A stretch of 64,000 nt of DNA from Roseovarius indicus (GTDB lineage: Bacteria > Pseudomonadota > Alphaproteobacteria > Rhodobacterales > Rhodobacteraceae): the NCBI RefSeq assembly GCF_008728195.1, contig NZ_CP031598.1, forward strand, positions 558,001 to 622,000, read 5' to 3'. The notes below the pieces were generated by a model. The model did not search any database. It worked only from the letters and a program-made list of their open reading frames with translations, and was not told where the DNA came from. Shown piece after piece: positions 46,963 to 48,863 of this stretch. Position numbers and translations under genes: made by a program. Each line of letters begins with the position of its first letter. Positions within the stretch are counted from its first letter, which is position 1.

Positions 46963-47184
46963 TCAGTAGCACTGCCATACGGTGACCCAGTTGCCCCAGT
47001 AGTCGTAGACGGTGATCCACTCGCAGTAGTAGGCGGTGTCGACGGCGGCCTCTTCGGCGACGGTTTGCGAGGCGGCGGGAGGGGTGAGGCTGGAGGTGTC
47101 GATGTCGAAGCTGTCGGAGATGGAGGCCTGGGCGTTTGCGGCGATGAGGGCGAAGGCGGCGGCGGTGAGGAGTTTCTTGAACAT
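46963..47184 (-). CDS. Small secreted aromatic-rich peptide, copy 1
   Basis: A 73-residue protein: a 20-residue signal peptide (ending ANAQA) and a 53-residue mature part that begins SISDSFDIDTSSLTPP. The last 22 residues contain two cysteines (mature positions 34 and 52) enclosing a tryptophan- and tyrosine-rich stretch with a WGN turn, which suggests a disulfide-closed beta hairpin. The gene has an AAAGGA ribosome site and its own promoter and terminator. It is 48/53 identical in the mature part to the copy at 47604-47825. I recognise no family. Confidence 0.85.
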   Translation of the reverse strand: MFKKLLTAAAFALIAANAQASISDSFDIDTSSLTPPAASQTVAEEAAVDTAYYCEWITVYDYWGNWVTVWQCY

Positions 47185-47240: not shown

Positions 47241-47281
47241 GGTGTATATATGACACCAAGTATTAGTGTTGTAAAGACACT
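47241..47281 (-). promoter_or_regulatory. Promoter and four-half-site operator of secreted peptide copy 1
   Basis: On the minus strand a -35 TTTACA (47270-47275) and -10 CATATA (47247-47252) are separated by 17 bp. Four alternating half-sites overlap them, each separated by seven bases: AGTGT, ACACT, GGTGT, ACACC. The pattern is repeated at 47882-47922. Confidence 0.75.
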
Positions 47282-47536
47282 TAATGGTCGATTGCGGCGC
47301 TTATCGCGTAAGCCATTGGAATCCAACGATTCAAATTTGGATGCTGGCGGGGAATAGCGACACGAACCAGCGAGATGCCCCCGGACTCATGGACAGGACC
47401 CAGGCCGAGTCGGGCGGGTTTCCACGAGCGGCAGGGCAATTCGCCTTCCGAGTGCTGGTATTCACGGCCAATATCCGACGCGGACAGCACAGGGCTCTGT
47501 GAGGCCCCCGCTATTCCCCTAAGCGATGCCAGGACG
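47282..47536. other. 255-bp spacer between the duplicated peptide genes
   Basis: Frames of 72 and 69 codons exist on either strand (47284-47502 and 47281-47490), but neither has a ribosome site or a recognisable domain, and the composition is unlike neighbouring genes. It may be debris from the duplication or an insertion. Confidence 0.4.
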
Positions 47537-47562
47537 AAAAAAGGCCCGCCGATTGGCGGGCC
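47537..47562 (-). terminator. Intrinsic terminator of secreted peptide copy 2
   Basis: Read on the minus strand, GGCCCGCC-AATC-GGCGGGCC is followed by TTTTTT. It lies 41 bases after the stop of the peptide gene. Confidence 0.9.
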
Positions 47563-47603
47563 AGGTGCTCTGGGAGGAGGGAGGGAGGTTCAGGAGCGAA
47601 AGA

Positions 47604-47825
47604 TCAGTAGCACTGCCACAGGGTGACCCAGTTGCCGTAGTAGTCGTAGACGGTGACCCATTCGCAGTAATAGGCGGTGTCGATGGCGGCCTCTTCGGTG
47701 ACGGTTTGCGATGCGGCCGGGGGGGTGAGGCTGGAGGTGTCGATGTCGAAGCTGTCGGAGATGGAGGCGTTTGCGGTGGCTGCGACGGTTGCGAAGAGGG
47801 CGGCGGTGATGATGGTCTTGAACAT
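47604..47825 (-). CDS. Small secreted aromatic-rich peptide, copy 2
   Basis: A 73-residue paralogue of the gene at 46963-47184, with the same length, signal-peptide length (20 residues, ending ATANA) and cysteine positions. The signal peptides match at about 12 of 20 positions, while the mature parts match at 48 of 53; differences are conservative (for example Ile/Val, Trp/Tyr). So the mature sequence appears constrained. Ribosome site AAAGGA; promoter 47882-47922; terminator 47537-47562. The function is unknown: a structural, signalling or antimicrobial peptide are all possible. Confidence 0.85.
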   Translation of the reverse strand: MFKTIITAALFATVAATANASISDSFDIDTSSLTPPAASQTVTEEAAIDTAYYCEWVTVYDYYGNWVTLWQCY

Positions 47826-47881
47826 TGTTTCGATCCTTTGTGTGTGGTCTTGTGTGTTTGGCGGTGTTGCCGTGTTTCGAT

Positions 47882-47922
47882 GGTGTAGTTATGACACTAA
47901 CAATAAGTGTTGTAAATACACT
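47882..47922 (-). promoter_or_regulatory. Promoter and four-half-site operator of secreted peptide copy 2
   Basis: On the minus strand, -35 TTTACA (47911-47916), 17-bp spacer, -10 CATAAC (47888-47893). Half-sites AGTGT, ACACT, AGTGT and ACACC alternate with exactly seven bases between each. Bases outside the half-sites differ from copy 1, while the half-sites are kept. Confidence 0.75.
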
Positions 47923-48120
47923 TAATGACGTTTACGCACCAGATCCCCGCAAGGCATTGGTTTGGAAAGATTCTTTTTTTATTTTATGTTGCCAGACCGG
48001 CATGCCTTGGCGCGATCTCGGTCGAAAACGCCCGTTGCAAGAGGCCGGCTAGGGCCGATTCCCACCCCTCCTGACGCAGCTTTTTGCGCGCATTCCGAAA
48101 AACTTTGCCCGCCCCCCGTG
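47923..48120. other. Intergenic region between peptide copy 2 and the NUDIX regulator
   Basis: A short AT-rich stretch (about 47970-47990, with a run of seven or more T) is present but has no adjoining hairpin. No gene is supported. Divergent transcription leaves this region as shared upstream DNA. Confidence 0.4.
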
Positions 48121-48162
48121 TTTACAACCGGCGCCGTACCTATATAGTGTCCGCAATACACG
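48121..48162 (+). promoter_or_regulatory. Promoter and candidate operator of the NUDIX regulator gene
   Basis: A -35 TTTACA (48121-48126) and -10 TATAGT (48143-48148) with a 16-bp spacer precede the ATG at 48174. AGTGT at 48146-48150 and ACACG at 48158-48162 are separated by seven bases and overlap the -10, the same arrangement as in the peptide promoters. This suggests autoregulation. Confidence 0.65.
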
Positions 48163-48173
48163 TAAGAGCGATC

Positions 48174-48863
48174 ATGACATACCAGTACGAATACCCGCAT
48201 CCCGCCGTCACCACCGACACGGCGGTGTTTTCCATCATCGAGGGGCGGCTGAACGTCGCCCTGATCGAACGGGCCGGCGAACCCTACAAGGGGCACTGGG
48301 CCTTGCCCGGCGGCTTTGTCCAGATGGACGAAGACCTTGAAACCGGCGCCCGGCGCGAGCTGGCCGAGGAGGCCGGGGTCACGCCCGCGCAGCTGGAAGG
48401 GCTGCCCTTCCTGCAGATCGGCGCCTATGGCCGGCCCGACCGTGACCCGCGCGAGCGGGTGATCACGGTGGTCTACCTGACGCTGGTGCCGATGGACCGG
48501 CTGAAGCTGGTGGCCTCGACCGACGCCGCCAAGGCCGAGTGGTTTTCCTTCGACAACCTGCCCGAGCTGGCGTTCGACCATGCGAAGATTCTCGACGATG
48601 CGCGGAACGCGCTGGCCAAGCTCGTGTCGACCGACCTGGGGGATGACGCCTCGGTGGTGTTTTCCTTCCTGCCCGAGGAATTCACCCTCTCACAGGCGCA
48701 GGTGGCCTTCGAGACGATCAAGGGCGAGCCCTTGGAGAAGCGGAATTTCCGCAAGTGGATCAATGCGCACTGGGATCTCGAAGACCTCGAGAAGAAGACC
48801 ACCGGCGGGCGGCACCGGCCGGCGAGCCTGTACAAGCTGAAGGGGCCGAAGAAGGCGGCTTGA
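48174..48863 (+). CDS. NUDIX-domain transcriptional regulator (NrtR-like)
   Basis: A 229-residue protein with an N-terminal NUDIX domain and a C-terminal winged-helix region (FTLSQAQVAFETIKGEPLEKRNFRKWI, then KTTGGRHRPASLYKLK), the architecture of NrtR regulators that sense ADP-ribose or related nucleotides. The Nudix box GFVQMDEDLETGARRELAEEAG keeps all consensus acidic residues, so hydrolase activity may be retained. The ATG at 48174 is used rather than the longer frame. It is divergent from the two peptide genes and no NAD biosynthesis operon is adjacent. Confidence 0.87.
   Translation: MTYQYEYPHPAVTTDTAVFSIIEGRLNVALIERAGEPYKGHWALPGGFVQMDEDLETGARRELAEEAGVTPAQLEGLPFLQIGAYGRPDRDPRERVITVVYLTLVPMDRLKLVASTDAAKAEWFSFDNLPELAFDHAKILDDARNALAKLVSTDLGDDASVVFSFLPEEFTLSQAQVAFETIKGEPLEKRNFRKWINAHWDLEDLEKKTTGGRHRPASLYKLKGPKKAA

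What the first reader, a model, noticed from the sequence alone, without database searches (positions are those of the whole stretch)
47241..48162. Shared alternating AGTGT/ACACT half-site array links the peptides to a NUDIX regulator
Both peptide promoters carry four 5-bp half-sites in alternating orientation, every pair separated by exactly 7 bp (12-bp period), covering -35 to past -10. Between the copies intervening bases vary while half-sites persist. The NUDIX regulator promoter has one AGTGT-N7-ACACG at its -10. This suggests one regulator controlling itself and both peptides, with strong cooperative binding on the peptides. The regulator keeps a full Nudix box, so a nucleotide signal (ADP-ribose-like) may control secretion of the peptides.
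Basis: partly seen in the sequence, partly recalled or inferred. Interest (0 to 1): 0.8.

Follow-up and report, generated by a model that had tools for sequence, protein, structure and literature searches.

The report
TIR-linked switch for secreted peptides
Repeated DNA sites suggest that a nucleotide-sensing repressor switches small secreted peptides on and off in a marine bacterium, and in relatives the same switch often sits beside an immune-type (TIR) membrane protein that may make the repressor's signal, which points to a bacterial alarm circuit that still needs bench tests.

Summary
Two peptide promoters carry four half-sites, (A/G)GTGT-N7-ACAC(T/C) twice, in an exact 12-bp register, with -35 and -10 boxes in the two dyad centres; the regulator's -10 carries one dyad. 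Two more arrays precede two further peptide copies 3.7 Mb away. The regulator is an NrtR-family protein. A 14-member NrtR clade, mostly Rhodobacterales, keeps the operator, an unannotated anionic secreted peptide (predicted beta-hairpin) or another secreted protein, and a TIR protein with one predicted membrane span and variable C-terminal domain (nSTAND, TPR, WD40, FGE). In 11 of the 14 a TIR gene lies within about 250 bp of an array, peptide or nrtR; in 3 its place could not be read; 0 of 24 genomes with other NrtRs have one near NrtR. The Nudix box is intact in 16 of 16 clade and near-clade proteins, 1 of 22 others. Best reading: the TIR receptor cleaves NAD+, an ADP-ribose-type product lifts NrtR off the arrays, secreted peptides are made, and the Nudix site may erase the signal. 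Operator control is strongly supported by comparison; signal, NADase activity and peptide function are inferred. The papers I could search describe no such circuit.

The parts
47882..47922 (-). Operator array of peptide gene 2: four half-sites, 12-bp register; -35 TTTACA (47911-47916) and -10 CATAAC (47888-47893) in the two dyad centres
47604..47825 (-). Peptide gene 2: 73 aa, Sec-type signal sequence (by eye and helix 2-17 of the model), 53-aa anionic mature peptide ending CEWVTVYDYYGNWVTLWQCY
   Evidence: no Pfam or NCBIfam match
47241..47281 (-). Operator array of peptide gene 1: four half-sites, 12-bp register; -35 TTTACA (47270-47275) and -10 CATATA (47247-47252) in the dyad centres
46963..47184 (-). 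Peptide gene 1: 73 aa, paralogue of peptide 2 (82% identical)
48146..48162 (+). Single operator dyad AGTGT-N7-ACACG over the -10 of nrtR
48121..48148 (+). nrtR promoter TTTACA-N16-TATAGT (consensus match by eye)
48174..48863 (+). NrtR-family regulator: Nudix domain with intact Nudix box plus NrtR winged-helix domain; the only PF21906 protein found in the genome

Best explanation
A TIR-NrtR-peptide alarm circuit. (1) A TIR protein anchored by one membrane span, with TIR (and in some an nSTAND NTPase) in the cytoplasm and a variable C-terminal domain outside, senses an unknown cue and cleaves NAD+ to ADP-ribose or a derivative. (2) NrtR, a dimeric repressor, occupies the dyads over -35 and -10 of the secreted-peptide genes and the single dyad at its own -10. 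The exact 12-bp register lets two dimers lie side by side, so repression is tight at the peptides and looser on nrtR itself. (3) The nucleotide binds the Nudix pocket, NrtR leaves, and the anionic hairpin peptides (at two loci instead a beta-sandwich secreted protein) are made and exported. (4) The intact Nudix site hydrolyses the nucleotide and resets the switch. Supported by comparison: operator, regulator and output in (2), and the TIR linkage. Inferred: repression, NADase activity, signal identity, hydrolysis, cooperativity, topology. Unknown: whether the peptide acts back on the receptor's outer domain or on other cells; I lean to the receptor.
For: Operator: 16 arrays, all in 12-bp register, half-sites AGTGT, ACACT, RGTGT, ACAYY exact in 15, 13, 11 and 14 of 16. 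Dyad within 400 bp before nrtR in 10 of 14 clade loci and in cousin L088 (11 of 15); in the four without (L020, L021, L022, L053) nrtR follows peptide genes; 0 of 22 other NrtR loci, some with less than 400 bp held. Exact array pattern in 3 of 255 family genomes, all three clade genomes. L088, with a different partner gene (Q_salvage), carries the same dyad at its nrtR start, so the motif follows NrtR, not the peptide. Co-occurrence: of 60 genus genomes the same 4 hold the peptide and the clade NrtR (a fifth peptide hit, E 7e-4, covers only the signal sequence and was dropped); of 394 family genomes the 3 with the peptide are among the 6 with the clade NrtR. TIR: within about 250 bp of array, peptide or nrtR in 8 of 9 clade genomes searched (ninth at a contig edge) and in L019, L021, L022; none near NrtR in 24 control genomes, 11 of which have TIRs. 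One strong hydrophobic span after a K/R-rich stretch and a C-x2-E glutamate in 10 of 10 TIRs examined. Nudix box 16 of 16 against 1 of 22; the 14 NrtRs form one clade, support 99/97. Precedent in Pseudomonas: an NAD-depleting toxin derepresses an NrtR target (PMC11535050, passages); MsNrtR binds a palindrome with the same N7 spacer and is released by ADP-ribose (PMC6800001, passages).
Against: No biochemistry. In the window's genome the TIR gene is 3.7 Mb from nrtR, beside the other peptide pair; no TIR lies in the window. In G816, G819 and G050 too it is beside a peptide or array on another contig than nrtR. Three of 14 clade members are undetermined (G815, L018, L020), and none of these shows a TIR in the DNA held beside nrtR. 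In L056 and L060 the array is followed by no evident gene before nrtR. The exact array pattern misses 3 of the 6 clade genomes in the family draw (G186, G208, G243), and its reversed control hits one genome (G167); with up to 2 mismatches the reversed control has 6 hits in the nine clade genomes, none in G000. The single dyad is common by chance genome-wide. TIR domains can lack NADase activity, and Nudix-HTH regulators can bind other ligands (AraR binds arabinose, PMC4666351 passages). Co-occurrence counts do not correct for relatedness.
Confidence: 0.62

Rival explanations
1. NrtR controls itself and the peptides through the arrays, but responds to general NAD turnover; the TIR gene is a separate defence gene that shares the neighbourhood and does not feed the switch.
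For: NrtRs are known NAD-metabolism regulators relieved by ADP-ribose. TIR genes lie in several orientations to the array, and in the window's genome far from nrtR.
Against: TIR within about 250 bp of array, peptide or nrtR in 11 of 14 clade members (3 undetermined), with four different C-terminal architectures, and none near NrtR in 24 other genomes. In the window's genome, G816 and G819 the TIR gene is beside the peptides even where nrtR is not.
Confidence: 0.2
2. The peptide is an off-switch: TIR activity threatens the cell by NAD+ loss, ADP-ribose relieves NrtR, and the exported peptide binds the receptor's outer domain and shuts it down (negative feedback, antitoxin-like). This shares the circuit with the best explanation and differs in peptide role.
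For: Peptide and receptor C-terminal domain are predicted to be in the same compartment. Peptide copies are multiplied under the same operator. Two unrelated secreted proteins fill the same place.
Against: The hairpin is strongly conserved while receptor C-terminal domains are of four unrelated kinds, which is odd for a binder of that domain.
Confidence: 0.25
3. A different transcription factor binds the arrays and nrtR merely shares that regulon.
For: No binding test exists; short half-sites could suit other factors. I did not search the loci systematically for another shared regulator.
Against: The motif follows NrtR into a locus with another partner gene, is absent near 22 other NrtRs, and the N7 spacer equals that of MsNrtR.
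Confidence: 0.05

Closest known systems
NrtR regulators of NAD metabolism (Shewanella, Mycobacterium smegmatis, Pseudomonas)
   Same: Nudix plus NrtR winged helix; autoregulation and palindrome with N7 spacer in MsNrtR; ADP-ribose relieves binding
   Different: Output is a secreted peptide, no NAD gene among the operator hits; intact Nudix box in 16 of 16, whereas it is described as impaired in NAD-type NrtRs (PMC4666351 passage); four-half-site array; TIR partner
Thoeris (ThsB TIR with ThsA) and other TIR signalling systems
   Same: TIR domain turns NAD+ into an ADP-ribose-type signal read by a second protein (PMC9503650 passages)
   Different: The proposed reader here is a transcription factor, the output secreted; TIR is predicted membrane-anchored; PADLOC models match only weakly, to the TIR part
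ARG-centred conflict systems with Nudix-HTH regulators
   Same: Nudix-HTH repressor predicted to sense ADP-ribose moieties and release an operon (PMC9503650 passages)
   Different: Built on ADP-ribosylglycohydrolases, not on TIR receptors and secreted peptides
Actinobacterial peptide-processing conflict systems (FxSxx type)
   Same: A small diverging peptide gene near a TIR-AP-ATPase gene; peptide proposed as toxin or amplifying signal (PMC7159879 section 24)
   Different: Those have a metallopeptidase, radical SAM enzyme and vWA partners; here Sec-type signal sequence and NrtR control; such partners were not systematically searched
NatR-NatT toxin with NrtR response in Pseudomonas aeruginosa
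   Same: NAD-consuming enzyme leads to derepression of an NrtR target (PMC11535050 passages)
   Different: Output there is NAD salvage; RES-domain toxin, not TIR

Membership tests
NrtR family | Nudix domain followed by NrtR winged-helix domain | tested here: met
   PF00293 78.3 bits and PF21906 72.6 bits, both over cut-off
NrtR family | Autoregulatory palindrome at own promoter | tested here: met
   Sequence only: dyad before nrtR in 10 of 14 clade loci plus L088; in the other four nrtR follows peptide genes. Binding not tested
NrtR family | ADP-ribose as effector | not testable with these tools
   Residues aligned by hand count with SoNrtR Arg41 and Arg98 (R33, R93) are invariant in 13 of 13 (SoNrtR roles; that 3gz5 is SoNrtR is recalled)
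NrtR regulators of NAD biosynthesis | Operators before NAD biosynthesis or salvage genes | tested here: not met
   The 12 dyad rows in the genome lie at the two peptide loci, nrtR and two lone places, one beside a flavin-reductase-like ORF (label by eye), one upstream of an ammonium transporter; only this exact pattern was tested
NCBIfam NF050029 (ADPR responsive repressor equivalog) | Score over the curated cut-off of 400 | tested here: not met
   133.7 bits
TIR NADases | TIR_2 domain over the Pfam cut-off | tested here: met
   10 of 10 proteins scanned: 7, 3; L019 was found by phmmer only
TIR NADases | Catalytic-type glutamate | tested here: met
   C-x2-E invariant in 10 of 10 rows; its catalytic role is recalled from other TIRs; the Toll-like-receptor TIR matched has the same glutamate
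TIR NADases | NAD+ cleavage | not testable with these tools
   none
Thoeris | ThsA partner (SIR2/SLOG or Macro) beside the TIR gene | not tested
   Only four TIR proteins, NrtR and one peptide were scanned with PADLOC; not every neighbour

The most novel reading that the evidence does not exclude
A bacterial receptor-to-gene immune pathway: a transmembrane TIR receptor with an interchangeable outer sensor makes an NAD+-derived second messenger that a transcription factor, itself an active Nudix hydrolase that erases the message, converts into production of secreted hairpin peptides acting on the receptor or on neighbouring cells, in effect a bacterial counterpart of TIR signalling that ends in induced secreted defence peptides.
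Probability: 0.35. Interest if true: 0.95.

Novelty: new variant of a known kind. Interest (0 to 1): 0.83.

Why it matters
The bacterial TIR systems I recall end in a directly activated effector. Here a TIR protein appears to be wired to transcription through an NAD-metabolite repressor and to a secreted output. That would make a TIR second messenger measurable with a simple promoter reporter, would give a function to an NrtR branch that kept its enzyme site, and would name a role for an unannotated secreted peptide family (89 hits in a search of 5.8 billion proteins, none with a listed Pfam domain).

Tried and rejected
Genome-wide scan of the single dyad as sole proof: rejected, since the reversed control is as frequent (12 rows against 11). 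NAD-gene regulon: no operator at a NAD gene among the hits. Peptides as cationic antimicrobial peptides: rejected, both mature parts have 8 D/E and no K/R; 44 of 65 family rows have no K/R and none has 3 or more. Phage or plasmid origin: peptide has no match in the plasmid collection; NrtR matches in plasmids (97 records) and phages (80 records) are all under 60% identity; the peptide was not run against phages. PDB search with the TIR domains: nothing for the nSTAND type, two weak TIR hits for the WD40 type. PADLOC: only weak matches, to TIR parts and one to the Nudix part. PHROGs: a MutT/NUDIX family at 5e-22 for the regulator, weaker Nudix families, one match of the nSTAND part, none for the peptide or the L055 secreted protein. 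That secreted protein gave a confident beta-sandwich-like model (mean pLDDT 85.1) with only weak PDB matches, among them subtilase, CUB, pre-peptidase C-terminal and collagen-binding domains. Literature: eight searches; no TIR-NrtR-peptide locus in the listings or in the passages I opened; the library lacks most subscription papers. The original NrtR papers (Rodionov 2008, Huang 2009) were not held; what I say of SoNrtR comes from passages of PMC4666351.

Full report
WHAT IS IN THE SEQUENCE. In gene direction array 1 is AGTGT-ctttaca-ACACT-aatactt-GGTGT-catatat-ACACC and array 2 is AGTGT-atttaca-ACACT-tattgtt-AGTGT-cataact-ACACC. TTTACA-N17-CATATA/CATAAC puts the -35 inside the first dyad and the -10 inside the second, 62 nt before the start codon. 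The nrtR dyad overlaps the -10 of TTTACA-N16-TATAGT (by eye). In the window AGTGT-N7-ACAC has 6 rows against 0.07 expected; the four-half-site array was never met in 2,000 local and 60 whole-window Markov draws. Genome-wide, the single dyad is not informative (12 rows, 11 for the reversed control). A longer array pattern with 0 mismatches hits four places in the genome, the two here and two at C1:4314127-4314799. With up to 2 mismatches three further rows appear, two of them opposite-strand readings of these arrays and one at C3:96530; the reversed control has no hit in G000 but 6 in the other eight clade genomes, and G819 has no array hit.

SECOND LOCUS. 3.7 Mb away (L014/L073) two further peptide copies lie head to tail behind the same arrays. 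The first copy is frameshifted; intact near-identical copies exist in the protein collection (P0002). A TIR-nSTAND gene starts about 145 bp after the second copy.

THE REGULATOR. 48174-48863 has a Nudix domain and an NrtR winged helix and is the only PF21906 hit in the genome. The best PDB matches are 5bs6 (AraR), 2fml and 3gz5 (that 3gz5 is SoNrtR is recalled). A 13-row alignment keeps every fixed residue of the Nudix box. With further rows the box is intact in 16 of 16, the 14 clade members plus L024 and L088, against 1 of 22 other NrtR-type loci (L072), five of which match NrtR only weakly. Chang et al. (PMC4666351, passages) state that the box is impaired in NAD-type NrtRs and not conserved in AraR, that SoNrtR Arg41 and Arg98 contact ADP-ribose, and that BtAraR has Gly at the latter place. 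By the alignment these fall on R33 and R93 here, invariant in 13 of 13 (my hand count of the register).

THE PEPTIDES. Each has a Sec-type signal sequence (by eye) and a 53-aa mature part with 8 acidic and no basic residues, ending in C-E-W-x4-D-x2-G-N-W-x5-C plus one residue. AlphaFold2 with 65 rows gives a signal helix (2-17), a low-confidence middle and a beta-hairpin (54-60, 66-72) with block means of 84-92 pLDDT; overall 69.8. A disulphide between the two cysteines is my inference. The single-sequence search found 13 relatives, the alignment search 89, none with a listed Pfam domain. Several draft contigs end inside or just before peptide genes, as expected for repeated near-identical copies.

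CONSERVED OPERATOR. In 14 arrays, extended to 16, every array keeps the 12-bp register; half-sites AGTGT, ACACT, RGTGT and ACAYY are exact in 15, 13, 11 and 14 of 16, and TTTACA stands in the centre of dyad 1 in 12 of 16. L071 has lost the proximal dyad and L054 half of it. A dyad lies within 400 bp before nrtR in 10 of 14 clade loci and in the cousin L088. In the other four (L020, L021, L022, L053) nrtR follows peptide genes; the array is seen upstream of the peptides in L021, while the contigs of L020, L022 and L053 are cut. None of 22 other NrtR loci has the dyad, some with less than 400 bp held. L088, from another family, has AGTGT-N7-ACACT at its nrtR start and an operon partner matching PF10343 Q_salvage, so the motif travels with the regulator. 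An exact-array scan of 255 family genomes hit only G000, G036 and G050, all clade genomes; it missed the other three clade genomes of that draw (G186, G208, G243), and its reversed control hit G167 once. The pattern was drawn from known arrays, so it is a test of specificity only.

CO-OCCURRENCE. Genus draw: clade NrtR (E below 1e-100) in 4 of 60 and peptide in the same 4; three more genomes hold other NrtRs (E about 1e-45) and no peptide; a fifth peptide hit, G777, E 7e-4, matches only the signal sequence and was dropped. Family draw: PF21906 in 21 of 394, 6 of them of the clade (G348 not classified), and the peptide in 3, all within those 6. If genomes were independent the odds would be about 2e-6 each; they are related, so this is a guide only.

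THE TIR LINK. phmmer and Pfam found TIR_2 proteins beside these loci. Genome-wide PF13676 placed 30 TIRs in 33 genomes. Of 11 in the nine clade genomes, 8 lie within about 250 bp of an array, peptide or nrtR: G000, G816, G819, G208, G036, G243, G186, G050. One (G815) runs off a contig edge and is undetermined, and two are second TIRs elsewhere in G000 and G819. Three further loci from named records add Maritimibacter (L019), Pararhodobacter (L021) and a RHODO2 MAG (L022): 11 of 14 clade members. In seven of these the TIR gene is at the nrtR locus itself; in G000, G816, G819 and G050 it is at a peptide or array on another contig or place. L018, L020 and G815 are cut and show no TIR in the DNA held beside nrtR (6 kb downstream in L018 and L020; a 3.7-kb contig in G815). 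Of 24 genomes with other NrtRs, 11 have TIRs (19 in all); none is near NrtR, and the nearest on the same contig is about 140 kb away. C-terminal parts are nSTAND1 (L014, L108; L019 similar by phmmer), TPR (L021, L022, L138), WD40 (L054, L055, L056, L060) and FGE (L109). FGE is named a C-type-lectin subtype in targets of diversity-generating retroelements proposed to sense invasion (PMC10907252, passages). All ten TIR proteins examined have one strong hydrophobic span after a K/R-rich stretch and a C-x2-E glutamate; the topology is my inference from the positive-inside rule. TIR genes are divergent, convergent or co-directional to the array, so they probably have their own promoters.

OTHER OUTPUTS. 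In L054 and L055 the array precedes a different secreted protein, modelled as beta-rich (mean pLDDT 85.1) with weak resemblance to subtilase, CUB and pre-peptidase C-terminal domains. In G208 (the L054 genome) peptides sit elsewhere, under a partly degenerate array, next to histidine-biosynthesis-like genes (labels by eye). In L056 and L060 about 200 nt with a terminator-like repeat and no evident ORF follow the array. Against a strict one-peptide model, the recurring element is an array with a secreted product beside a TIR gene.

MECHANISM. The simplest account is NAD+ cleavage by TIR, an ADP-ribose-type ligand for NrtR, release of arrays, secreted output, and Nudix reset. MsNrtR binds an N7-spaced palindrome and is released by ADP-ribose (PMC6800001, passages); in Pseudomonas an NAD-depleting toxin induces an NrtR target in part of the cells (PMC11535050, passages). 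Known relatives are TIR-to-effector systems and Nudix-HTH-controlled ARG systems (PMC9503650, passages) and actinobacterial peptide systems near TIR-AP-ATPases (PMC7159879 section 24). What I saw of these does not combine the parts found here. The eight literature searches showed no such description; subscription journals are mostly not held.

VERDICT. The organism is a Roseovarius relative: the nrtR contig of its same-genus relative G816 has the length of a Roseovarius record (105,585 bases).

Noticed in passing
L014:4225-4442 (G000:C1:4314224-4314441): First peptide copy of the second locus is frameshifted; the array before it is intact, and intact near-identical copies exist in the protein collection.
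   Followed up: partly
L088:5278-6920 (G515): A cousin NrtR with intact Nudix box and the same AGTGT-N7-ACACT dyad is in an operon with a queuosine salvage protein (PF10343), a possible further NrtR regulon.
   Followed up: partly
L016:2197-2212 (G000:C1:2332696): A lone AGTGT-N7-ACAC dyad about 70 bp upstream of an ammonium transporter gene; probably chance at this frequency.
   Followed up: partly
L109:5262-6710 (G819): TIR protein with a C-terminal FGE-sulfatase (C-type-lectin-like) domain beside a peptide gene; whether a diversity-generating retroelement is nearby was not checked.
   Followed up: no
L056:6860-7050 and L060:6985-7170: Array followed by about 200 nt with a GC-rich inverted repeat and no evident ORF: lost gene or an untranslated RNA.
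   Followed up: no
L072 (G172): The one control NrtR with an intact Nudix box; no NGTGN-N7-NCACN dyad in the 1.4 kb around its start, partner genes not studied.
   Followed up: no
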